Positions 1 to 30,394 of a stretch of 52,519 nt of DNA are shown in pieces. Both the position numbers and the translations under genes were made by a program. Origin of the DNA: a virus. Below the pieces are notes generated by a model that saw nothing but the letters and a program-made list of their open reading frames with translations, did not search any database and was not told where the DNA came from. Numbering within the stretch: position 1 is the first letter of the stretch; every line of letters begins with the position of its first letter. The DNA lies in the IMG/VR virus record IMGVR_UViG_3300040801_001234, positions 1-52,519 of that record. One strand, written 5' to 3'.

Positions 1-1441
1 AAACTTTTTCTCTAATCATGAATATTCCAGTAGTGGTTCTAAAGTAGTCAAACCGCTTTGACCATTTTTTAAATAACCTAATAGCATTTGAAACATACAT
101 GTCAGCATGACCTGAAGTGAGATTATTTTGTCCATCAGACAAATGAATGCACTCTGCATCTATTGCAAAGTTTTTGTATCCTGCATTAATACAAGCGAGA
201 CAGATATCAGCACCGTACCAATGATAATGATCGAATGTATCTTCATCGAAAAATATAGGAAGATTTTTGTCAACTATTAAACAAAGTTCATCAACTGTTT
301 GAACTTCCTTACGTTTTCCGAAAATGTTTCTAAAAGTATCAGAGAATGATTGACCGTTTGGTAATTTATCTCCAAGATATATAGCAGCATAATCAGAATC
401 AGGTGTGGGATGGGCAGTATTTTTCGTAGCTCCTGCCATTCCTAAAACGCCCCACTTTATTTTTTTAGCATTTAATGCGTTAATGTGAGATTGGATGTTA
501 TGTATCCATCCATTAGGAACCTTTAAATCTTGGTGGCAAAGAATTATAGTCTGACCGTCGCTAATCATTCTGGCAACATTAAGAGCCTCTGAACATGATT
601 TATAATCATTATTGAAGTTAGGAATTACTATAACTTCAAAATTAACATCAGTCTTTTGTAGTTTTATATCATCTAAGAAATTTTCATATATATCAACTGA
701 ATGAGTTAATGTAGCAATAGACACTTTAACATTTTTCTTTTTTCTGTGATTTTCTACAATGTCTTTTATGATGTATTTGTTATCTAAACTCTTTAATGAA
801 TATGGACGAGGTAATTTAACTTTACTTGTCAAGCCATATTTTATTATAGTATGAATATAATCACTATGCACATCTAATTTAGCATCGTGAGTTACTATAA
901 AAGTTTCTGTCAGTTTTTCTAATGATTCTTTTTTGATGGCTGGAAATTCCGATTTTCCATCACCATCAATATGTCTTATTTTATAACAATTGTAATCTTG
1001 GCATTTTAATTTTATTCTCTGTGAAAAAGACCTAACTTCGCTTATAGAACCTTCAAGACATATAGCTACAGTTGCTTTTGTTTTTTGGTTTGCAAAACTC
1101 TTTGAGAAATTTATAGCATCTAAAGCTGAGTTTTTATTATATTCAAGAATACTAAATGATGAGTTGTCTTTGAAATCATATCCATTATTATCTTTCGACA
1201 TGTAATTTTTCATCATGTCATGAGTCAAAATCTGTTTATTAGCTTTCGACCCTTTATATTTCACTACTTTTTTATTTGCTTCATTTATTCTTTTTACTTC
1301 TCTTGAATCAATTTCTTTAAGACCTAAGTACATGCCAAGACTACCTGGACCTTCTATTGTTTGTCCAGGCTCCACTTTAATCTTTCTACCATTAGATATG
1401 ATAGATATGGGATTTCTTGATATGTTTTTGAACTGTGGCAT
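1..1441 (-). CDS. Glycosyltransferase-like protein (C-terminus cut off by window edge)
   Basis: Open for 480 codons from an ATG at 1441 and running off the left edge, so the C-terminus is missing. The first ~110 residues form an unrecognised N-terminal part. From about residue 210 the protein looks like a GT-A/GT2-type glycosyltransferase: a VSIATLTH-like strand, a FEVIVIPNFNN segment, ILCHQDLKVPNGW (the CHQD element common in phage and bacterial GT2-like proteins), and later FDEDTFDHYHWYGADIC. Its start overlaps the TAA of the downstream UvsW C-half by one base (TAATG), so the two are probably translationally coupled. The role could be DNA or virion glycosylation, but the acceptor cannot be inferred. 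The family call rests on motifs only. Confidence 0.6.
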   Translation of the reverse strand, partial: MPQFKNISRNPISIISNGRKIKVEPGQTIEGPGSLGMYLGLKEIDSREVKRINEANKKVVKYKGSKANKQILTHDMMKNYMSKDNNGYDFKDNSSFSILEYNKNSALDAINFSKSFANQKTKATVAICLEGSISEVRSFSQRIKLKCQDYNCYKIRHIDGDGKSEFPAIKKESLEKLTETFIVTHDAKLDVHSDYIHTIIKYGLTSKVKLPRPYSLKSLDNKYIIKDIVENHRKKKNVKVSIATLTHSVDIYENFLDDIKLQKTDVNFEVIVIPNFNNDYKSCSEALNVARMISDGQTIILCHQDLKVPNGWIHNIQSHINALNAKKIKWGVLGMAGATKNTAHPTPDSDYAAIYLGDKLPNGQSFSDTFRNIFGKRKEVQTVDELCLIVDKNLPIFFDEDTFDHYHWYGADICLACINAGYKNFAIDAECIHLSDGQNNLTSGHADMYVSNAIRLFKKWSKRFDYFRTTTGIFMIREKV

Positions 1442-2307
1442 TACATTGGTACTTCTATAATCTCATAATCAAATTCATTTTCATTATAGTACTTTATTCT
1501 TTTATTTTTGTGTTTGATTGAGAATTTGAGATTCTCGCAAATATCGTATAAATCTAATTTAGTTTTAGTGTTGTGTAATCTTAATCCTCTTCCGACACTT
1601 TGAAGTGTTTGTATTTTGGATTTTCCAGGACTAGCGAATATAACTGAATGTAATCTTTTTATAGATACCCCAGTGGAAAAAACACCAACTGTAGCAACAA
1701 TAACATTTCCACCAGACTTTTCTAATGAATGTCTAGCGTCATTTCGGTCTTTTATCTTAGTTTCTCCAGTAACCATGTAGGTACTTATATTTGCTCCCTG
1801 AAGCATTTCAGTTAAAATTCTAGCATGATCTAACTTCTTAACGAGTATCAAACTATTCTTGTCTTTATCTGCATACACTTTAGCTATTCTGCATATGATT
1901 TTGTTTCTCTTTGGGTCAGACTCTACAAATTCTCTTTCTTCGGGGTATACATCAAAAGATTTTGACTCTACTATTTCGTCTGAATATTTACAATCTATTA
2001 CTTTTATATTAATTCCAGAAATTTGGTTTTTGTCTTGTAGTTCCTTATATCCAATTTCGTCTATTATTGGACCTAATACTCCTTCAATCAAAAAGAAATC
2101 TGCTTTAGGTTCTGGCATTGTTCCTGTAAATCCTAAACGTATAGAAGCATTTACAGCGTTTTCAGCGACTGATCTTACTACATTAGCTTTAAGTCCATGA
2201 CAATTACTTACACAAACATCTTCTGCAAAGTAATTATGATTGTCTTCAATATGTAAATTGAACACTTCGTTAGAATTTTCAATTTTAGTAATTCTTTTTA
2301 TCTTCAT
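1441..2307 (-). CDS. uvsW: UvsW helicase C-terminal half preceded by a split-intein C-fragment
   Basis: Residues 1-35 are an intein C-fragment: block F-like NEVFNLHIEDNHNYFAED, ending VCVSN. Residue 36 (Cys) is the +1 extein residue and opens CHGLK, the second half of a DECH helicase box. The rest is the RecA2 half of a superfamily 2 helicase, with GFTGT (motif III-like), ATVGVFSTGVS (motif V) and QSVGRGLR (motif VI). With the N-half (231 extein residues) the spliced product would be 484 residues, against about 500 for T4 UvsW, which unwinds branched DNA during recombination-dependent replication. The penultimate intein residue is Ser instead of the usual His. No good ribosome-binding site precedes the ATG. 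The gene lies 46 bases downstream of the N-half. Confidence 0.9.
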   Translation of the reverse strand: MKIKRITKIENSNEVFNLHIEDNHNYFAEDVCVSNCHGLKANVVRSVAENAVNASIRLGFTGTMPEPKADFFLIEGVLGPIIDEIGYKELQDKNQISGINIKVIDCKYSDEIVESKSFDVYPEEREFVESDPKRNKIICRIAKVYADKDKNSLILVKKLDHARILTEMLQGANISTYMVTGETKIKDRNDARHSLEKSGGNVIVATVGVFSTGVSIKRLHSVIFASPGKSKIQTLQSVGRGLRLHNTKTKLDLYDICENLKFSIKHKNKRIKYYNENEFDYEIIEVPM

Positions 2308-2353: not shown

Positions 2354-3349
2354 TTACGTTATTATATCATGACACTCTAAATCTTCATCACCATTTAGTT
2401 CATCGACTCTCTTCCAAGAACCATCAGTAAGCATAACTTTATGATTTCCTGTTATTTTTATGATGTTGCCATTATCTAATTCAATTTCGTACATTTGTTG
2501 ATCTAAAGACATATTATGATACACTTCTAAAACAGGATTATTTTCTATTTCACCTGTAGTTTCGTTTTTTGTTATTACCATATCACCTTCATTAATGTCT
2601 TTTATTTTCTTTTTTGTCCCATCAGACATACTTATCATTGAATCAGGATGTAAACATTCATCGCTAATCAGTACAGTAAATTTCTTTAGAAGGTCTTTTT
2701 TCTTGTGAATAGACTGCCAAGTTGAAACTAATATCTGAGCGTCTTCGTCCTTCTGGAAGCCAAAATATTTGCCTACTAAGTCAGTAGGTATCCCGTATTC
2801 TTCTAAGTTTTCTACGAACTGTTCAACTAGGTCAATCTTAGGAACCATTAAAAGAATCTTGTGATTAGGATTTTCCTTCAAAAGATAATGTATAGTAAGG
2901 GCTATAGTAAAACTCTTACCTGCTGAGGTAACATGTCTACAAATTCCTCGTTTGTAATAGCAAGCTTTTAAAGCTCCTCTAAGTTGATGAACATATGGGG
3001 TTAATTTTGATTCTAAGGAATCTGCATGTTGTAGGAATTCTTCCCTGAAATCAGAAGCATTTATTGACGCTTCTGGAATCAAATCAGGATCGATTTCCAT
3101 CTCATGAAATTCATCATCATAAACATATTTGCATATTCTTTTGAAATTTCCTACATAGAATTTTCCATCAGTTTCAACGAATCTGATTTTACCATCCCAT
3201 TTTCCTGATTTATACGAAGGCATAAACCAATAGTTATCTACAGGTACTTCAAATTTCTTATATGCTGCTGATAGTATTTTAGAATCTTCAGTTACTATCT
3301 TAGCCCATACGTTATTAAGTTTGACTATAGATATTTTTGGTTTTCCCAT
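2354..3349 (-). CDS. uvsW: UvsW helicase N-terminal half followed by a split-intein N-fragment
   Basis: Residues 1-231 are the N-terminal and RecA1 part of a UvsW-type SF2 helicase: Walker A TSAGKS at 141-146, LLMVPKIDLVEQF (motif Ia) and VLISDE at 226-231. The extein stops exactly in the DExH box. Residue 232 is the intein catalytic Cys (block A CLHPDSMI), followed by block B ITGNHKVMLTDGSW, for a 100-residue N-fragment. With the 35-residue C-fragment this is the canonical split-intein break point between blocks B and F. Trans-splicing would restore SDE|CHG. The gene lies directly downstream of uvsY, as in T4. There is no clear Shine-Dalgarno; TATAAT lies 12 bases before the ATG. Confidence 0.92.
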   Translation of the reverse strand: MGKPKISIVKLNNVWAKIVTEDSKILSAAYKKFEVPVDNYWFMPSYKSGKWDGKIRFVETDGKFYVGNFKRICKYVYDDEFHEMEIDPDLIPEASINASDFREEFLQHADSLESKLTPYVHQLRGALKACYYKRGICRHVTSAGKSFTIALTIHYLLKENPNHKILLMVPKIDLVEQFVENLEEYGIPTDLVGKYFGFQKDEDAQILVSTWQSIHKKKDLLKKFTVLISDECLHPDSMISMSDGTKKKIKDINEGDMVITKNETTGEIENNPVLEVYHNMSLDQQMYEIELDNGNIIKITGNHKVMLTDGSWKRVDELNGDEDLECHDIIT

Positions 3350-17751: not shown

Positions 17752-19533
17752 ATGCCAAGACCAAAACCGAATATGAATGAATTACTAAGTAAATATTTTG
17801 ATGGGTGTCAATATATCACACCCGAAGAGACAAATTTTAATTGTAACACTCTAATAGAAGTTAAATGCAATTCCAATATAGAGCATACCTATAAAATATC
17901 AATAACTCAAATAAGAAGAGGTAAAGACCCTAAAGTATGTCCGCATTGTATTAAGGAAACTAAATACAAAGAACAAGGAATTCCTAAAAGAGTTATAGAA
18001 GAATACGCCAAAATTAATAATGTAACATTTAGCCCTATAAAGAAATTCTATAATAGATGGAAAGATTATATTACTTTCAAATGCAAAGAAGATAATTATG
18101 AATTTACTGTTAAATGTCTATCGCATTGGGAATCAAATAAAAAACAATTCGAATGCCCACTGTGCAAGAAAAAAGAGCTGGGAATAATGACTCAAAAAGA
18201 ATTGATAGATAAACTATCAACATTAGATAATACTACTATTAGTAAAGAATTAAAACTACCTCCTATTGATATAGATAAACTACCCTTTAATCTCCAGAAT
18301 AAATTAAAGGATCAATCAAAATGGACTCTTATTGAGTATAAAAACACCAAAACAAAAGCAAAATTCCAATGCAATGACTGTGGAAACATCAAATATACAT
18401 ATCCACATAATTTGTTCATAAACGGTATGGGGTGTAAAAAATGCCATTTGGAAAGTAAAAACAAAAAAATGAGAGAAAATCTAAAGTCAATATTATTCGA
18501 AAGTGATTCTTATATTCTAAATGATTCTGATAAGATAACATCAACCACAGTTCTAAGGATAAAATGTAATAAATGTGGACATGAATTTAAAAGAAAATAC
18601 CAGAACTATAATCAAGAAGAAAAAATCCCCTGCCCTGCATGTCATAAAAGTACAAAAAGGAAATCTCAAAATGAAGTTTATGAGTATGTTAAATCCTTAG
18701 AGCCTCTTGCAATTCAAGAATATAAAATAAACGGAGTTGAATTGGATATATATCTTCCATCGAAAAAATTAGCTATAGAATACTGTGGTCTTTTATGGCA
18801 TTCTACTAAATACATTGAAGATAGTAAGAGACACCATAGAAAATGGAAATTTTGCAAAGACAACAACATTCAGTTATTAACTATATTTGAAGATGAATGG
18901 AAAGATAAAGAAGAAATATGCAAATCTAGAATAAAGAATCTAATGGGAAAAATAGACAACAAAATTTTTGCCCGAAAAACTGAAATATCAATTATAGACA
19001 ATAAGACAGCACTAAGATTTTGTGAAACTAACCATATACAAGGTAGAGGACAATCTAGTATAGCATATGGTTTATATTATAAAGATGAGTTAATATCTGT
19101 GATGACTTTCAGCAAGCCTTCTGTTTCAAAATCAGGAAGCAACTATGACTACGAACTTAATAGATTTTGTTCTAAAATAGATACTGTAGTGGTAGGTGGG
19201 GCTAGCAAATTACTAGCACAATTTAAGAAAGATCATGAAGGATCAAAATTAGTTACATTTTGCGATCTTAGGTGGGGAAGTGGAAACGTTTATGAAAATA
19301 TAGGATTCGAGTACGAGTATACTACTAAAGAAAATTACTACTATTTTGGAAAGCTAACTGATTACAAAAGAAAACATAGGTTCAGTTTTAATAAAGGAAA
19401 ACTACTCAAAATTCTTAATATATCCAATTCGTCACTTACTGAAGAACAATTAGCTAAATCTTTAGGATTGTATAGAATATATGATTGTGGTCATATGAAA
19501 TTTTCTCTAACAGCAAAGGAGCAACATGTCTGA
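17752..19533 (+). CDS. Free-standing Vsr-like (EDxHD) homing endonuclease
   Basis: A 593-residue protein. The N-terminal ~310 residues hold several CxxC zinc-ribbon-like modules (CPHC, CPLC, CNDC/CKKC, CNKC/CPAC) of the type used for DNA recognition. The nuclease core is VELDIYLPSKKLAIEY (E330, D332), WHS, a downstream HH pair, and LLTIFEDEW: the Vsr-like family known from fractured phage genes and group I introns. The C-terminal part (IQGRGQSSIAYGLYY ... GGASKLLAQFKK ... NIGFEYEY) resembles the tail of the terL endonuclease. It sits between the capsid terminator and a small gene it overlaps by eight bases. No intein or intron flanks it, so it is a stand-alone insert. Confidence 0.85.
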   Translation: MPRPKPNMNELLSKYFDGCQYITPEETNFNCNTLIEVKCNSNIEHTYKISITQIRRGKDPKVCPHCIKETKYKEQGIPKRVIEEYAKINNVTFSPIKKFYNRWKDYITFKCKEDNYEFTVKCLSHWESNKKQFECPLCKKKELGIMTQKELIDKLSTLDNTTISKELKLPPIDIDKLPFNLQNKLKDQSKWTLIEYKNTKTKAKFQCNDCGNIKYTYPHNLFINGMGCKKCHLESKNKKMRENLKSILFESDSYILNDSDKITSTTVLRIKCNKCGHEFKRKYQNYNQEEKIPCPACHKSTKRKSQNEVYEYVKSLEPLAIQEYKINGVELDIYLPSKKLAIEYCGLLWHSTKYIEDSKRHHRKWKFCKDNNIQLLTIFEDEWKDKEEICKSRIKNLMGKIDNKIFARKTEISIIDNKTALRFCETNHIQGRGQSSIAYGLYYKDELISVMTFSKPSVSKSGSNYDYELNRFCSKIDTVVVGGASKLLAQFKKDHEGSKLVTFCDLRWGSGNVYENIGFEYEYTTKENYYYFGKLTDYKRKHRFSFNKGKLLKILNISNSSLTEEQLAKSLGLYRIYDCGHMKFSLTAKEQHV

Positions 19534-23896: not shown

Positions 23897-24452
23897 CCCA
23901 AAGAAAATAGATGATTTACTTGAAGTCGGAGACAAGATAAGAGAATTAGAAGAAGGAGACACCTCTGACGATGATAAAAGAAAACGCCAAAATGAAAGAA
24001 AGAATGCGATTAAAAAAATAAACGCTGAAATAGCAGCGTTAAAAAATAACGATGACGAAAAGTTTGTTCAAGAGAGTCTTCGAGAAATCGCTACTATAGG
24101 TTTATCTAGCATGAGAGTTCTCCAGGGAGAAATTGAAGAAGACCCTAGCGGAAGAGCAGTAGAATGCATGGCAGCTATAACCAATGCTGTGACAAACGCT
24201 GTAAAACAAATTCAGAACCGTGATATTGACGAAAGAAAAATAAGAGTAGAAGAAGAAAAATTAACAATTAAAAAGAACATAGCACTTCCAGGAGGAACTG
24301 GAACTACTAATGTTTTAATGATAGGTTCTATGAAAGAAGTTCTTGGAGCAATGCGAGACGGTGAATTTGAAAACGAAGATGAAATACAAGAATACCTCGA
24401 AGAAGAGAACTATAGAAATTCTGGTAAAGGTTCTCCATTCAAAAAGGATTAA
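23889..24452 (+). CDS. 16: Small terminase subunit gp16
   Basis: A 187-residue protein (T4: 164) that regulates DNA packaging with gp17. It has the usual plan of N-terminal charged helices, a central coiled-coil oligomerisation region (RAVECMAAITNAVTNAVKQIQN) and a C-terminal tail with ATP-stimulation role. ATG 23889 is chosen because AAAGGAG lies five to six bases upstream; earlier in-frame ATGs lie inside gp15. The gene precedes the fractured terL by three bases. Confidence 0.85.
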   Translation: MTNPKKIDDLLEVGDKIRELEEGDTSDDDKRKRQNERKNAIKKINAEIAALKNNDDEKFVQESLREIATIGLSSMRVLQGEIEEDPSGRAVECMAAITNAVTNAVKQIQNRDIDERKIRVEEEKLTIKKNIALPGGTGTTNVLMIGSMKEVLGAMRDGEFENEDEIQEYLEEENYRNSGKGSPFKKD

Positions 24453-24455
24453 CAA

Positions 24456-24818
24456 ATGCCTATAAAATACGACGATCAATATGTATTAAGACCCAATCAT
24501 AAAGTAGAGTGGACTCCTGCTATGCTCAAAGAGCTTAGAAAATGCTCTCATAAGGTTGAATACTTTGCTGAAAATTATTACTACATTATTGGTAAGAATG
24601 GTAAACAACTTATTGATTTTACTGGATATGATTTTCAAAAGAGGTTAATCAAAGAGTTTGATAAGAATCGTTTTAATGTAGTATTGTCAGCAAGACAGAT
24701 GGGAAAATGTGTTACAGAAGATACCATTATAGAAGTCTATGATGAAGAATTAGATAAAACCTCTAAAATGACTATCAAGGAGTTTTTTGACCTTTGCGAA
24801 TCACACTCGCCTTCGTAG
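24456..24818 (+). CDS. 17: Large terminase gp17 N-terminal part plus 36-residue split-intein N-fragment
   Basis: Residues 1-84 are the N-terminus of a T4-type TerL ending VVLSARQMGK, that is, Walker A cut after the Lys. Residue 85 is the intein Cys; residues 85-120 (CVTEDTIIEVYDEELDKTSK then MTIKEFFDLCES) are a very short intein N-fragment holding only block A and a little more. The matching C-fragment is 122 residues long. This asymmetric break resembles the AceL-TerL type of atypical split intein rather than the canonical split between blocks B and F. The product would be an inactive ATPase until joined to the C-half. The stop at 24818 is followed by a late promoter and the endonuclease gene. 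Confidence 0.92.
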   Translation: MPIKYDDQYVLRPNHKVEWTPAMLKELRKCSHKVEYFAENYYYIIGKNGKQLIDFTGYDFQKRLIKEFDKNRFNVVLSARQMGKCVTEDTIIEVYDEELDKTSKMTIKEFFDLCESHSPS

Positions 24819-24852
24819 TGATTAATTTGGTTGCATAATTTTGGGCACCCAG

Positions 24853-24860
24853 TATAAATA
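24853..24860 (+). promoter_or_regulatory. T4-type late promoter inside the terL break
   Basis: TATAAATA ends five bases before the ATG at 24866. With T4 spacing, transcription would start at the A of that ATG, giving a leaderless endonuclease-gp17C mRNA. No Shine-Dalgarno is present. Confidence 0.7.
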
Positions 24861-24865
24861 ATACT

Positions 24866-26539
24866 ATGAATTATATACACTCCACGAAGGAAATCTCTGA
24901 ACATTTTGGTATTGGAAAAACCACTATAGATTATTGGAGAACTTCAGGAAAAGTTTCATCTAAACTCATTGGGAAAACTTATTTCTTTGATTACGACGAG
25001 ATAAAGAACTTTCTAAATAGAAAAAACGAAAAGAGTCATCCTAAAGGAATTTATTGTCACATATGCGAGTCTCATACTAAATACTCTTCTAAAAAATCAT
25101 CAAATTTTGTGACACAGCATTTGTTAAAGATTCATGGAATCAATGCTAAACAATATTATGATGAATATGTAGGAAAGGAAGAGGACAAGTATTGTCAAAA
25201 TTGTGGAAGCGAAAAGACTTTTATATCTTTGAATAAAGGATATAAATCTCACTGCAAAAATCCAAATTGTTATTCTAATGATAAAGAGGTAAAAGAAAAG
25301 GTCCAAAGGACTAAATTAGAAAAGTATAATGATGCTTTTTTTGTTAATAGGACAAAAGCAAAAGACACTAACCTTCAAAAATATGGAACTCCTAACTTTA
25401 CTAACAGGTCAAAAGCAATAGAGACTATGAAGGAAAGATATGGAACGTCAAATATTATGAAATGCGAAGAATTTAAGAAAAAATCATTAGAAACAAAAGC
25501 AACATCTAAACTTAAATTATATGACCAGAATGACAACATAACGGCTATAGACCTCGAACATCAAAGATTGACTTTTCAATGTTCTAGATGTAGTTGCATA
25601 ACTACCATGGATACTAAATTAGTTTATACTAGACTAAAAAGAGGAATTACATTATGCACTAATTGTTTTCCAGTTAACGATATTAAGATAGTTTCATATT
25701 GTGAAAAAGAGATAATTAAATTCATAAAATCACACTTTCCGGAAGAAGTAATAGAGAACGACAGAAATTCTATAGGAAAAGAATTAGACATATTAATACC
25801 TTCAAAGAAACTAGCATTTGAATATAATGGTATTTTTTGGCATAGCGACGAGAAAAAAGAAATCAATTATCATCTAGAAAAAACTAACAAGTGTCAAGAA
25901 GTTGGCATTCAGTTGATTCATATATTTGAGGATGAATGGAATAATAGTAGAGAAATTGTAGAAAGTAAAATACTGCACCTTCTAGGAATAAGTCGCTATA
26001 AAATATCTGCTAGAAACTGTGAAGTATGCAGAGTACCAGTTAAAGATCAAATACAGTTCTATGACGACAATCACATACAAGGACATGCTAGAAATAGTTA
26101 TACAATTGGGCTCAAGTATAATAACGAATATGTAGCTATGATGAGCTTTATAACTGGGAGAGGAAAATACGATTTGGAACTCAATAGATATGCTACAAAA
26201 AAATATCACGTAGTTCGCGGAGGAGCTAGCAGACTTTTATCTAAGTTTAAAAAGGAAAATCCAAATAAACTAATAGTGTCTTATGCAGATAAGTGCTGGT
26301 CGAATGGAAATCTTTATGAAACAATTGGATTTAAAAAAGTAAAAGAATCTAAACCATCTTATTTCTATGTAAACCCATCAACTTTAGTAAGAGAACATAG
26401 ATTTAAATATAGAAAAGAAAATCTAAAGAAAATGGGTTATGATATAGAAGGAAAAACTGAAAAACAAATAATATCAGAAAACACAAACCTAATTAGAATT
26501 TATAATTCTGGATATTATGCTTATGAATTGGAGACGTAA
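24866..26539 (+). CDS. Vsr-like homing endonuclease inserted in the fractured terminase gene
   Basis: A 557-residue protein. Residues 1-50 (STKEISEHFGIGKTTIDYWR ...) are a MerR/excisionase-like helix-turn-helix. Zinc-finger-like Cys/His pairs follow (CHIC, CQNC, C..C/H). Then come NUMOD-like repeats 'K.KYGT.NF.NR.KA...', typical of phage homing endonucleases. The nuclease core is ELDILIPSKKLAFEY (E306, D308), FWHS, YH and IHIFEDEW (354-358). The C-terminal domain (IQGHARNSYTIGLKY ... GGASRLLSKFKK ... IGFKKV) is shared with the endonuclease at 17752. Its TAA overlaps the ATG of the gp17 C-half (TAATG), so the C-half depends on its translation. It would cut intein-less terL alleles (inference). 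Confidence 0.9.
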   Translation: MNYIHSTKEISEHFGIGKTTIDYWRTSGKVSSKLIGKTYFFDYDEIKNFLNRKNEKSHPKGIYCHICESHTKYSSKKSSNFVTQHLLKIHGINAKQYYDEYVGKEEDKYCQNCGSEKTFISLNKGYKSHCKNPNCYSNDKEVKEKVQRTKLEKYNDAFFVNRTKAKDTNLQKYGTPNFTNRSKAIETMKERYGTSNIMKCEEFKKKSLETKATSKLKLYDQNDNITAIDLEHQRLTFQCSRCSCITTMDTKLVYTRLKRGITLCTNCFPVNDIKIVSYCEKEIIKFIKSHFPEEVIENDRNSIGKELDILIPSKKLAFEYNGIFWHSDEKKEINYHLEKTNKCQEVGIQLIHIFEDEWNNSREIVESKILHLLGISRYKISARNCEVCRVPVKDQIQFYDDNHIQGHARNSYTIGLKYNNEYVAMMSFITGRGKYDLELNRYATKKYHVVRGGASRLLSKFKKENPNKLIVSYADKCWSNGNLYETIGFKKVKESKPSYFYVNPSTLVREHRFKYRKENLKKMGYDIEGKTEKQIISENTNLIRIYNSGYYAYELET

Positions 26540-28290
26540 TGGAAAGATGTTTAAAGTTTACTAAAGTTGTTGATGTCCCAAAAAGATATAAGGTAAAATC
26601 TCCAGAAGGGTGGTCATCTGTAAATGCTGCCATGCAAACCATAAAATATGATGTTTGGTATCTGGAACTTCAATCTGGTGATCATTTAAGATGCGCAGAC
26701 AAGCACATAGTATATAAAAAGGTTGGAGAGGCGTTTGAAGAAATATTTGTTGAAGACGTAGTTCCAGGGGACATAATTCAAACAGATGAAGGAGAATCAA
26801 CTTGTTTTATATGCAAGCCTCTAGGACATGAAGAAGTAATGTATGACTTAGAAATTAATTCAGACTCGCATCAATATATAACAAACAATTTGATTTCTCA
26901 TAATACAACTTGTTCTTGTATATATCTTCTATGGTATGCTATTTTTAACGATGACCAAGAAATTGCAATACTTGCTAACAAACAAGACACCGCCGCAGAC
27001 ATTCTTAATGACATTAAAGTTGCTTATGAACAATTACCTCCGTTTCTTAAGCCAGGAGTTAAAAAGTATGATAATTTGTCAGTCCATTTTGATAATGGAA
27101 CGAAGATATTCGCAAAGGCAACTTCTCCAGATGCCCTTCGTGGATATTCTGTTAATTTACTGTTTCTGGACGAGTTTGCGTTCGTAGAACAAAACATAGC
27201 GGACAAATTTTGGGCATCAAATCTTCCAACAATCTCAACCACTGAAGGTAGTGTTATTGTGGTATCTACCCCTAATGGTGCGGTTGGTCTATTTTATGAT
27301 CTTTGGAAAAGAGCAAATGCCCAACAAGAAGATGAAACTACTGGAGATGTGTGGGTTCCGACTAAAATACACTGGTCAGAACATCCCGACCGAGATGATA
27401 CATGGAAAGAGTCCATGCTTAACTCTATGTCTAAAGTTCAATTTGCTCAGGAGTTTGAAGTTAGTTTCACTGGGTCAACTTATACTTTAATAGATGGTGA
27501 TATACTCTCAACCCTTCACCATAAAGAACCAGCATTTTATCCAGACGAAGGATATTATATTTGGAAACGTCCCGAAAAGGGACATCTATATGCTATTGGT
27601 GCTGATACAGCTAAAGGAGCTAATACTGACTTTCATGTGTTAAATATCTTTGATGTAACTTGGTTTGCAAGTGGTGGAAGAATAGAACAAGTAGCTATGT
27701 TTAGAAGAAATGACATATCTGTGTTTGATTTTACTGACAAAATACCCCAAATAGCACATGACTGGAATGATGCGGTATTAATAATAGAAAACAATGATCT
27801 TGGTCATGCGGTAGTTCATGAAGTATACTACACACATTCATATGAAAACACTTTCTATAATCATGAAAAGGGTGAATATGGAATAAATTCCAATAAGAAG
27901 ACTAAACCAAAGGCTCTCAATTACTTTAAAGAAGACGTTGAATCCGGAAAGATGATTATAAACTCGGAGGCAATGATAAGGGAACTTACGTATTATGAAG
28001 AAGTTCGCACAGGTATTTTCCAGGCTCGAAAGGGTCGCGAGTATCATGATGATACCGTTGCTTCTGGGTATTGGGTATCATATCTTCTTAGAACTCCTTA
28101 TTGGATTGACTTTTATGAATATTGGACAAAAAATAATAACCCTAACTCAAAAGAACTTCAAAACATTGTTGATAACGAAAACATGATAAAAGATATGGAA
28201 ACTGCTGACAGGTTTATGCGAAGAATAAGTAAAGCGTCATCAGATGGTTACGAATATTTGGATGACTTCGGGCGACAATTATCTCAATGA
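26539..28290 (+). CDS. 17: Split-intein C-fragment (122 residues) plus large terminase gp17 C-terminal part
   Basis: Residues 1-122 are the intein C-fragment: a block-B-like GDHLRCADKH, VPGDII, block F EEVMYDLEINSDSHQYITNN, and block G LISHN (His-Asn present). Thr123 is the +1 residue, restoring GK|TTCS of Walker A. Then Walker B VNLLFLDEFAF, VIVVSTPNG (motif III), VQFAQEFEVSFTGS, and the RNase H-like nuclease domain with AIGADTAKG, LIIENNDLG and KGREYHDDTVAS. Extein length is 84 + 461 = 545 residues (T4 gp17: 610). It pumps DNA through gp20. Block B has Ala where the T-x-x-H Thr is expected. Expressed by coupling to the endonuclease. Confidence 0.93.
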   Translation: MERCLKFTKVVDVPKRYKVKSPEGWSSVNAAMQTIKYDVWYLELQSGDHLRCADKHIVYKKVGEAFEEIFVEDVVPGDIIQTDEGESTCFICKPLGHEEVMYDLEINSDSHQYITNNLISHNTTCSCIYLLWYAIFNDDQEIAILANKQDTAADILNDIKVAYEQLPPFLKPGVKKYDNLSVHFDNGTKIFAKATSPDALRGYSVNLLFLDEFAFVEQNIADKFWASNLPTISTTEGSVIVVSTPNGAVGLFYDLWKRANAQQEDETTGDVWVPTKIHWSEHPDRDDTWKESMLNSMSKVQFAQEFEVSFTGSTYTLIDGDILSTLHHKEPAFYPDEGYYIWKRPEKGHLYAIGADTAKGANTDFHVLNIFDVTWFASGGRIEQVAMFRRNDISVFDFTDKIPQIAHDWNDAVLIIENNDLGHAVVHEVYYTHSYENTFYNHEKGEYGINSNKKTKPKALNYFKEDVESGKMIINSEAMIRELTYYEEVRTGIFQARKGREYHDDTVASGYWVSYLLRTPYWIDFYEYWTKNNNPNSKELQNIVDNENMIKDMETADRFMRRISKASSDGYEYLDDFGRQLSQ

Positions 28291-28346
28291 TGATAAATAT
28301 AACTTATGAGAAATTCAATTATTTATTAAGTCTAAGACTCATGACT

Positions 28347-28354
28347 TATAAATA
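28347..28354 (+). promoter_or_regulatory. T4-type late promoter TATAAATA for sheath and tube
   Basis: An exact match, 38 bases before the gp18 ATG at 28385, with AAGGAG in the leader. Confidence 0.85.
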
Positions 28355-28384
28355 CTATTGAAGTAACCTCATAAGGAGTAGACT

Positions 28385-30394
28385 ATGGTAGGATCAGCTA
28401 ATCAATCTCCAGGCGTTGATATAATCGAACGCGATGCATCTCTTAGAATTCCAACAGTAACCTCTTCAGTTGGGGCTATAGTTGTAGCTGCTGAACGCGG
28501 TCCCTTAAACGTTAGAGTACTAATTAATTCTGAAAAAGATTATGTTGATACTTTTGGTCGCCCAGATGATGTAAACTATAAGCATTTTTTCACTGCAAAG
28601 TCATTTTTGGAAGGGTCAAATGCCCTCCACGTTGTTCGTACTGAAGATAGTGATAAATTAGTAGCAGGTGTTACTATTGGGTTAAGTGGAGCTTCTTTAG
28701 CTTCTTATCCAACTCCTCTAGCTGCTGAAAACTTCCCTCTTACTTATGATGATATACCTGACACTACTCCAATTGCTCTGGACAGTGGTACTCCTATTTT
28801 TGATGGAGCAACTGGTCCTGCGCAAGTTCAAAACGAAATTTATCACGCATGGGGCGTTGGTGCTGGACCTTACTACGAAAACGTTCAAATCGTAGTCATT
28901 ACCGCAGAAGATTATCAAATACTTTTAGGACTTCAGGAAGAACTTGCACAAGCTGCAACTTCAGATGAACAACAGGCAATTATTTACAAATATTATAATG
29001 GTGATCCTCCATCAACTATTACTGGTCAACCAGGATACGATATTTGGGTAGGAACCCCTCCAACAACTTCAAATCCTATTTTTGATGATACTGGAGATTA
29101 TTTGGCTGGAAATCCTCTAGCTGATGATATTATTGTAACCCCAGCTAATAGTGCTCAAGGAATTTGGGAAATAAATAGTGCATTGCTTGCTCAGTATCTA
29201 AATTTCGAGTTTGGACCTGATGTAACAACCGAAGAGGATGAATTTGCACTACACGTCTTCGCAGAAGGAAATCAGGTAGAATCATACATATGTTCTAAAC
29301 TAGTTGGTAGGAGAGACTCTCAGGGCAACTTAATGTTTGTTGACAATGTTGTAAACGGAAATAGTAATTATATCTACTTCTTCGTCGGAGCAAGTCCTAC
29401 AGGTGCTGCTGGATACGATCTAGTATCTACTGGATTAATTAATCTTGGAGGAGCAGATGCCCTTACAGAGAACCTATTCGATCTAGTAGGTGAAATTGAA
29501 ATGCAATGGAGAGAGCATTTTACTAATAAAGAATCTCTCGAAGTTGACATTCTTCTTGACCCTGACTATCCAAACATTCTAAAGCGTAGCATTGATGATA
29601 TTGCTAGAAATGTCCGTAAGGATTGTATAGCACTTCTTCAAGTACCTGTTACGAATATGATCAACACTTCAACTGGTAAGCCTATTTCTCGTCCTTATTC
29701 TTCAATGAAGAATTATGTTAACAGAGAACTTAACATAAACTCAAGTTATAGCGCAATTTATGGTCAATATTTCCAGATATTTGACTTCTATAACGAAAAG
29801 CTAAGATGGGTTCCTGTAACTGGTTATGTTGGAGCCGTTATCGCCAGAGTTGACTTCCAGTATGATCCTTGGTGGGCACCTGCTGGATTAAATCGTGGTA
29901 TTATCAGTGGAATTAATAAAGTTGCTCTTGAGCATAACAAGCCACAAAGAGATGTATTGTATTATAACAGAATAAACACTATTCCAAATTTCGATGGTCA
30001 AGGAATTGTTATCTGGGGTCAAAAGACTCTACAAGCTAAGCCTTCTGCCTTTGACAGAATTAACGTCCGTCGTTTATTCCTTCACATGGAAAGAAGCATA
30101 GAAAAACTTGCTAGATATTTCTTGTTTGAATTTAATGATGAGGCAACTCGTTCACGATTCCGTGGTCTTGTTAATAACTTCATCGCTGAAATTCAAAGCC
30201 GAAGAGGTGTATTGGATTATCTAGTTGTTGCTGACGAGTCGAACAACTCTTCAGACGTAATTGATCGTAATGAATTCGTTGCTGAAATTCTAGTCAAGCC
30301 TACAAGAGTAATTGAGTTCATTAAGTTGATATTCACTGCTGTTGGTTCTGGTGTAGAATTCACCGAATTTGTGGGTGCCTCTTCTGGAGTTTGA
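28385..30394 (+). CDS. 18: Tail sheath protein gp18
   Basis: A 669-residue protein (T4: 659). The contractile sheath signature is clear: SPGVDIIERDAS at the start, TVTSSVGAIVVAAERGPLN, IEMQWREHFTNKESLEVDILLDPD, then IARNVRKDCIALLQVP, YSAIYGQYFQIFDFYNEKLRWVP, GYVGAVIARVD, PWWAPAGLNRG and INTIPNFDGQGIVIWGQKTLQ, followed by NVRRLFLHMERSIEKLARYFLFEFND. Expressed from its own late promoter, as in T4, and followed by the tube gene 21 bases later. Confidence 0.97.
   Translation: MVGSANQSPGVDIIERDASLRIPTVTSSVGAIVVAAERGPLNVRVLINSEKDYVDTFGRPDDVNYKHFFTAKSFLEGSNALHVVRTEDSDKLVAGVTIGLSGASLASYPTPLAAENFPLTYDDIPDTTPIALDSGTPIFDGATGPAQVQNEIYHAWGVGAGPYYENVQIVVITAEDYQILLGLQEELAQAATSDEQQAIIYKYYNGDPPSTITGQPGYDIWVGTPPTTSNPIFDDTGDYLAGNPLADDIIVTPANSAQGIWEINSALLAQYLNFEFGPDVTTEEDEFALHVFAEGNQVESYICSKLVGRRDSQGNLMFVDNVVNGNSNYIYFFVGASPTGAAGYDLVSTGLINLGGADALTENLFDLVGEIEMQWREHFTNKESLEVDILLDPDYPNILKRSIDDIARNVRKDCIALLQVPVTNMINTSTGKPISRPYSSMKNYVNRELNINSSYSAIYGQYFQIFDFYNEKLRWVPVTGYVGAVIARVDFQYDPWWAPAGLNRGIISGINKVALEHNKPQRDVLYYNRINTIPNFDGQGIVIWGQKTLQAKPSAFDRINVRRLFLHMERSIEKLARYFLFEFNDEATRSRFRGLVNNFIAEIQSRRGVLDYLVVADESNNSSDVIDRNEFVAEILVKPTRVIEFIKLIFTAVGSGVEFTEFVGASSGV

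What the first reader, a model, noticed from the sequence alone, without database searches (positions are those of the whole stretch)
24456..28290. Large terminase is a three-gene 'fractured' locus with an atypically split intein
TerL is cut inside Walker A (ARQMGK|TTCS). The N-gene ends with a 36-residue intein fragment starting at C85. An endonuclease gene follows, then the C-gene starts with a 122-residue intein fragment ending SHN before Thr +1. Known: fractured genes with Vsr-like endonucleases were described from metagenomes, and AceL-TerL is an atypical split TerL intein with a short N-part. Here both features occur together in a full structural context. Block B has Ala in place of Thr (CADKH), which is unusual.
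Basis: partly seen in the sequence, partly recalled or inferred. Interest (0 to 1): 0.9.

Follow-up and report, generated by a model that had tools for sequence, protein, structure and literature searches.

The report
Phage packaging gene split by intein
In a T4-like virus the essential DNA-packaging motor gene is cut in two inside its ATP-binding loop by a split intein, with a separate homing-endonuclease gene sitting in the break; relatives show whole, broken-and-occupied and broken-but-emptied versions of the same intein, so the locus is one frame of a visible evolutionary series.

Summary
TerL is encoded by an N-gene (84-residue extein + 36-residue IntN), an endonuclease gene, and a C-gene (122-residue IntC + 461-residue extein). 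All residues needed for splicing are present, and joining restores Walker A (ARQMGK|TT). Best reading: the halves are joined by protein trans-splicing, and the gene between is a Vsr-like homing endonuclease. This is a "fractured gene" broken at the atypical S2 position.

(1) It is not an AceL-type TerL intein: it sits at another site (P-loop, Thr+1), and its same-site relatives are the continuous ~159-residue mini-inteins of Ackermannviridae. (2) Block-B Ala is invariant in all 35 relatives aligned. (3) The combination is not unique: at least ten other viral contigs have the same S2 break at a P-loop with an endonuclease gene in the gap, in TerL, DnaB-like and SMC-like ATPases. Others are continuous, or split with an empty gap.

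One close pair (L097/L100) shows endonuclease deletion leaving a bare split intein. A TATAAATA late-promoter motif lies 5 nt before the endonuclease start. No splicing or homing has been shown experimentally. Verdict: new variant of a known kind.

The parts
24456..24707 (+). TerL N-extein, 84 residues, ends inside Walker A (...SARQMGK)
   Evidence: PHROG TerL E=1.3e-15; aligned with Ackermannviridae TerL
24708..24815 (+). IntN, 36 residues, Cys1, ends after first helix (S2 split site); stop 24816-24818
   Evidence: helix 23-29 then low-confidence loop 30-47 in model of continuous homologue
24853..24860 (+). TATAAATA, T4-type late promoter motif, 5 nt before endonuclease start
   Evidence: 14 in window against 6.15 expected; 6 of 17 split sites have it just after the N-gene against 0.73 in shuffles
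24866..26539 (+). Vsr-like (Hef/PHROG 3339) homing endonuclease, 557 aa: N-terminal HTH_17, DUF7487 region, Vsr-like nuclease core, C-terminal GNAT-like domain
   Evidence: PHROG 3339 E=1.8e-111; HTH_17 and DUF7487; 3r3p E=0.006; fold search Vsr 1cw0 and GNAT/Mom folds
26530..26533 (+). GGAG Shine-Dalgarno-like sequence inside the endonuclease end; stop and start overlap (TAATG)
26539..26904 (+). IntC, 122 residues, block B CADKH, block F MYDLEI, ends SHN
   Evidence: profile matches VidaL, gp41-1 and CatC structures
26905..28290 (+). TerL C-extein, 461 residues (Thr+1, rest of ATPase and RNase H-like nuclease), stop included
   Evidence: Terminase_6N E=6e-15, Terminase_6C E=1.2e-4

Best explanation
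The locus makes one ~545-residue large terminase from two genes. The two intein pieces associate, fold into one HINT domain and trans-splice. Cys1 attacks at GK|C, Thr+1 takes over the N-extein, and Asn122 of IntC cyclises. This joins ...ARQMGK to TTCS... and rebuilds the Walker A loop, without which the ATPase cannot work. The gene in between is a mobile Vsr-like homing endonuclease that sits in the loop after the first helix of what was once a continuous P-loop mini-intein. It probably cuts terL alleles lacking it, so that repair copies the endonuclease and the intein with it. It is read from its own T4-type late promoter, and the C-gene is translated from within its end. Shown: gene anatomy, complete splicing motifs, HINT fold of the family, nuclease kinship, existence of continuous, occupied and emptied homologues. 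Inferred: trans-splicing, homing, that the endonuclease made the break, promoter use.
For: Both halves align along their length with a continuous same-site intein of Ackermannviridae (annotated as a 159-aa intein in Klebsiella phage Magnus). Catalytic positions invariant in 35 relatives: TxxY, ADxH, G, MxD, HN. AlphaFold model of continuous homologue L047: pLDDT 93.4, weakest stretch residues 30-47 = the break. Best solved matches are VidaL (E=2e-11), NpuDnaB and gp41-1 inteins; Cat also matched. Splitting between K and T of Walker A means neither half can be an ATPase alone. Endonuclease. Sister group L045+L046 (100/97) has the same break with shorter endonucleases. Continuous and split-plus-endonuclease forms are sisters in L086/L073 (99/92). 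L097/L100: flanks 80-88% identical, ~957 bp endonuclease absent in L100, which keeps ~30 nt of its 3' end. No group I/II intron by Rfam.
Against: No splicing or homing experiment exists for this sequence. The six-residue tail ESHSPS of IntN has no clear homologue and may be read-in from the insertion. The 52.5 kb record is probably incomplete, so a second terL elsewhere is not excluded. IntN and IntC are both acidic (net -7 and -8), so the charge pairing of canonical split inteins is absent. The endonuclease could be inactive or domesticated.
Confidence: 0.87

Rival explanations
1. The split came first (for example by a stop/start mutation in the flexible loop) and the endonuclease later settled in the harmless gap; it did not cause the break. 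This concerns origin only and is compatible with trans-splicing.
For: Several relatives are split with only 3 bp or an overlap between the halves and no endonuclease (L071, L105). Different nuclease types sit in the gap of different loci (Vsr-like in most, T5orf172 GIY-YIG in L093), which suits a landing pad.
Against: Where a close pair exists (L097/L100) the empty one carries the 3' end of the endonuclease, so that empty state is secondary. L066 keeps a truncated nuclease. Continuous L086 is sister to occupied L073.
Confidence: 0.27
2. Two-piece terminase without splicing: the halves work as associated subunits, as reported for a phage ribonucleotide reductase gene broken by a homing endonuclease.
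For: [quoted passage not shown]
Against: The break separates K from T of Walker A and both ends carry complete, conserved intein motifs.
Confidence: 0.04
3. The gap is removed at the RNA level (self-splicing intron holding the endonuclease).
For: Intron-split terL with RNA splicing is known in phage ICP1 (PMC10448857).
Against: No intron family at E<=1 over 24000-28800. The intein motifs end and start inside the two ORFs and each ORF has its own stop/start and, for the C-gene, an SD.
Confidence: 0.02
4. The endonuclease is no longer a mobile element but kept as a spacer or regulator (late promoter plus translational coupling set TerL-C dosage).
For: TATAAATA 5 nt upstream of its start and TAATG coupling to the C-gene.
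Against: Long intact ORF with all invariant positions of its family; the same promoter habit in several other loci fits a gene that brings its own promoter.
Confidence: 0.1

Closest known systems
Fractured genes with split inteins and Vsr-like homing endonucleases (Dassa et al. 2009, PMC2677866; text not held here, cited from memory and from PMC6892783)
   Same: Enzyme gene broken by a split intein, free-standing Vsr-like endonuclease between the halves, phage context
   Different: From memory, those were DNA synthesis/repair enzymes; the canonical break near 35 residues from the intein end is the usual one (PMC6801210, PMC13014065). Here the extein is a terminase and the break is at the S2 site
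AceL-TerL / GOS-TerL / Cat atypically split inteins
   Same: TerL extein; IntN of 25-37 residues ending after the first helix (S2; PMC13014065); CatC is a sequence match (E=1.9e-10)
   Different: Cys+1 site (GOS-TerL Ser1/Cys+1, PMC11766414) as against P-loop site with Cys1/Thr+1; in the tree other-site inteins form a separate group (86/93)
Ackermannviridae TerL mini-intein (e.g. Klebsiella phage Magnus, 159 aa)
   Same: Same insertion site GK|T, homologous over both halves, same ADxH block
   Different: Continuous, no endonuclease gene in the intein
MIJ3/PA5oct PolB split intein with endonuclease (PMC6892783)
   Same: Isolated phage with endonuclease gene between split-intein halves
   Different: PolB extein, canonical split (N-terminal half carries blocks A to N4)
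I-Bth0305I / Vsr endonucleases
   Same: Nuclease core of the window endonuclease
   Different: Window protein is longer, with HTH and C-terminal GNAT-like domains (Hef/PHROG 3339 type)

Membership tests
Split intein (trans-splicing) | Nucleophile at position 1, block B His, penultimate His-Asn, nucleophile +1 | tested here: met
   C1, ADKH, SHN, Thr+1
Split intein (trans-splicing) | HINT fold | tested here: met
   Model of continuous homologue L047 with window IntC in the alignment; best PDB match VidaL 6vgv
Split intein (trans-splicing) | Two separately encoded halves that splice in trans | not testable with these tools
   Two ORFs shown; splicing needs an experiment
Atypically split (S2) intein | IntN of 15-37 residues, break after beta2 or first helix (PMC13014065) | tested here: met
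   36 residues; break in loop after helix 23-29 of the homologue model
AceL/GOS-TerL intein allele | Same insertion site in TerL with Cys+1 | tested here: not met
   P-loop site with Thr+1
Fractured gene | Conserved enzyme broken by split intein with free-standing endonuclease ORF between | tested here: met
Vsr-like (EDxHD) homing endonuclease | Sequence or fold kinship to I-Bth0305I/Vsr | tested here: met
   3r3p E=0.006; 1cw0 fold match E=3e-3, TM 0.52 by target; modest scores
Vsr-like (EDxHD) homing endonuclease | Cuts intein-less/endonuclease-less allele | not testable with these tools
   needs enzyme assay
Ackermannviridae-type P-loop TerL intein family | Insertion at GK|[TS], TxxY, ADxH, MxD, HN pattern | tested here: met

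The most novel reading that the evidence does not exclude
The window belongs to a single mobile intein lineage dedicated to P-loops (GK|T/S). It moves between unrelated ATPases (TerL, DnaB-like helicases, SMC/Rad50-like, AAA) and is repeatedly broken at the non-canonical S2 loop by separate endonuclease genes, whose later loss leaves atypically split inteins. That would explain both where S2-split inteins come from and why endonucleases outside the canonical intein site are seen only as separate genes.
Probability: 0.5. Interest if true: 0.72.

Novelty: new variant of a known kind. Interest (0 to 1): 0.55.

Why it matters
It has been called puzzling that endonucleases inside inteins always sit at one canonical (C35) site (PMC6801210). 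This locus and its relatives show endonuclease genes at another site, each as a separate ORF, with continuous, occupied and emptied versions of the same intein. That makes the route from whole intein to fractured gene to bare split intein testable. The P-loop family is also a source of new atypically split inteins with Cys1/Thr+1 for protein ligation, and breaking the Walker A of an essential packaging motor makes splicing directly assayable as ATPase or packaging.

Tried and rejected
RNA intron: no Rfam hit. Hairpin hiding the endonuclease start codon in read-through transcripts: predicted, but no better than shuffles (z -0.59), so dropped. Intrinsic terminator after the N-gene: none above expectation. 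Charge complementarity of halves: both acidic. Equating the S2 break with the N35 loop of PMC6801210: residue numbers do not clearly match, so not claimed. The C-gene query alone found only one relative in viral contigs; the alignment query was needed. In the tree VP-1 (L038) was mislabelled split; labels were corrected and the count repeated without it (5 changes, at least 3 forced by well-supported branches, one clade of continuous inteins rejected at p-AU 0.005). TerL exteins as one clade rejected only weakly (p-AU 0.035).

Full report
Observation. The window is a 52,519-base virus record with a T4-like structural cassette. Pfam shows a gp15-type tail sheath stabiliser before terL and a tail sheath gene after it. 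The N-gene 24456-24818 ends ARQMGK followed by a 36-residue segment from C85. The endonuclease gene runs 24866-26539. The C-gene 26539-28290 begins with 122 residues ending SHN, then TTCS. The C-gene carries Terminase_6N (E=6e-15) and Terminase_6C, and the N-gene hits TerL PHROG 36964. Spliced length is 84 + 461 = 545.

The intein and its real relatives. tblastn with the 122 residues alone finds 353 phage records at a loose threshold, 348 of them over at least 80% of the query, led by Ackermannviridae. There TerL holds a continuous intein at the same site, annotated as a 159-residue mat_peptide in Klebsiella phage Magnus. In a multiple alignment the 36 + 122 residues match that intein over its length; the halves meet where the phages have a variable loop. 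An alignment-based scan of viral contigs gave 66 loci. In 35 inteins aligned, ADxH (block B), TxxY, a Gly, MxD and HN are invariant, so Ala in block B is a family mark. In a tree of the C-parts, P-loop inteins fall on one side of a branch (86/93) from other-site inteins.

Structure. A model of the continuous homologue L047, built with the window IntC and 33 other rows, has pLDDT 93.4; strands 7-12 and 17-22 and helix 23-29 are followed by the only weak stretch, about residues 30-47. The break falls there, i.e. the S2 position described for AceL and GOS TerL inteins (PMC13014065). The best solved fold match is VidaL, an atypically split intein, E=2e-11. By sequence profile gp41-1, VidaL and CatC match at E=5e-13 to 2e-10.

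The endonuclease. It belongs to PHROG 3339 (homing endonuclease, E=1.8e-111). It has an N-terminal HTH_17, matches I-Bth0305I (3r3p) at E=0.006, and its model matches Vsr 1cw0 (E=3e-3) and GNAT folds including phage Mu Mom. So "Vsr-like" is supported with modest scores. Relatives are found in many phages.

The series of states. Locus by locus: (a) continuous inteins: Ackermannviridae, L086, L095, L104; (b) split with a gap holding an endonuclease-like ORF: window, L045, L046, L070, L073, L077, L087, L094, L097, L102, L103, with L093 holding a T5orf172 GIY-YIG protein; (c) split with little or nothing between: L071 and L100 (3 bp), L105 (overlap), L074, L050, L109; (d) remnants: L066 (truncated nuclease). 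In Salicola phage SCTP-2 the two halves lie about 173 kb apart on opposite strands. Most gap ORFs show weak restriction-endonuclease-like (MTES_1575, DUF559) or PHROG 3339/559/22677 matches. The window groups with L045 and L046 (100/97), whose endonucleases are shorter. Continuous and split states alternate on the tree: 5 changes, at least 3 forced by well-supported branches, and one clade of continuous inteins is rejected (p-AU 0.005). L097 and L100 are 80% and 88% identical on the two flanks; L100 lacks about 957 bp of endonuclease but keeps about 30 nt of its 3' end. So at least that bare split intein arose by loss of the endonuclease.

Exteins. The same family interrupts the P-loop of TerL, of DnaB-like helicases (L096, L097, L099, L100, L102, L103, L115), of SMC/Rad50-like proteins (L105; weaker L101) and of AAA proteins (L109, L121). 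Extein classes are mixed on the intein tree; TerL as one clade is rejected only weakly (p-AU 0.035), so movement between unrelated P-loop genes is likely but not proven.

Expression. TATAAATA, the T4 late promoter motif (established knowledge), occurs 14 times in the window against 6.15 expected, 12 of them on the + strand; one ends 5 nt before the endonuclease ATG. Six of 17 split sites have the motif within 100 nt after the N-gene stop against 0.73 in shuffles, never reached in 2000. Late genes of such phages have this motif anyway, so it shows a probable local promoter, not necessarily one that came with the endonuclease. The C-gene start overlaps the endonuclease stop (TAATG) with GGAG upstream.

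Mechanism and confidence. Because Walker A is cut between K and T, an active terminase needs the halves rejoined; the motifs for this are complete. I put trans-splicing at about 0.9, an active or recently active homing role at about 0.7, and the endonuclease as cause of the break at about 0.65. An RNA intron is unsupported. Novelty is limited by the known fractured genes (Dassa et al. 2009, not held, from memory) and atypically split TerL inteins; the combination at a P-loop, with a visible series of states, is a variant I did not find described in the papers I could search, which exclude most subscription journals.

Noticed in passing
window 2354-3349 (-) and 1441-2307 (-): A second split intein in the same virus: a UvsW-like helicase is cut after VLISDE by a canonically split intein (N-half Pfam Intein_splicing positions 1-90, C-half 122-155), only 46 nt between the genes and no endonuclease. 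Canonical and atypical split inteins coexist in one genome.
   Followed up: partly
window 17752-19533 (+): A second, distinct Hef/Vsr-like endonuclease gene (29% identical) directly after the major capsid gene.
   Followed up: partly
L043 3992-4885 and L111 (Salicola phage SCTP-2, MF360958): TerL of an isolated phage is in at least three pieces: N-half with IntN at 429404-429724 (-), C-half at 256428 (+), and the latter ends in what looks like another IntN at Walker B. The halves are 173 kb apart.
   Followed up: partly
L070 3325-8361, also L091: TerL apparently in four pieces with three split inteins (P-loop, Walker B region, CEFL site), two gaps holding endonuclease ORFs. L066, L093, L114 and L120 have two.
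   Followed up: partly
L038 3443-6785 (Vibrio phage VP-1, MH363700): TerL has a continuous P-loop intein plus a second break at the Cys+1 site, where the IntN-like end runs in frame into a GIY-YIG-like endonuclease and IntC starts the next gene; VAP7 lacks this second insert.
   Followed up: no
L075 1800-2998: An intein-less TerL ORF (SRQMGKTVVL, Terminase_6N E=8.5e-11) lies directly before a split, intein-bearing TerL N-gene: two terminases side by side or a recent recombination.
   Followed up: no
window 24853-24866: The late promoter motif is so close to the endonuclease ATG that a T4-like start site would give a leaderless message; no SD precedes this gene. Most other TATAAATA sites in the window lie further from their genes.
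   Followed up: partly
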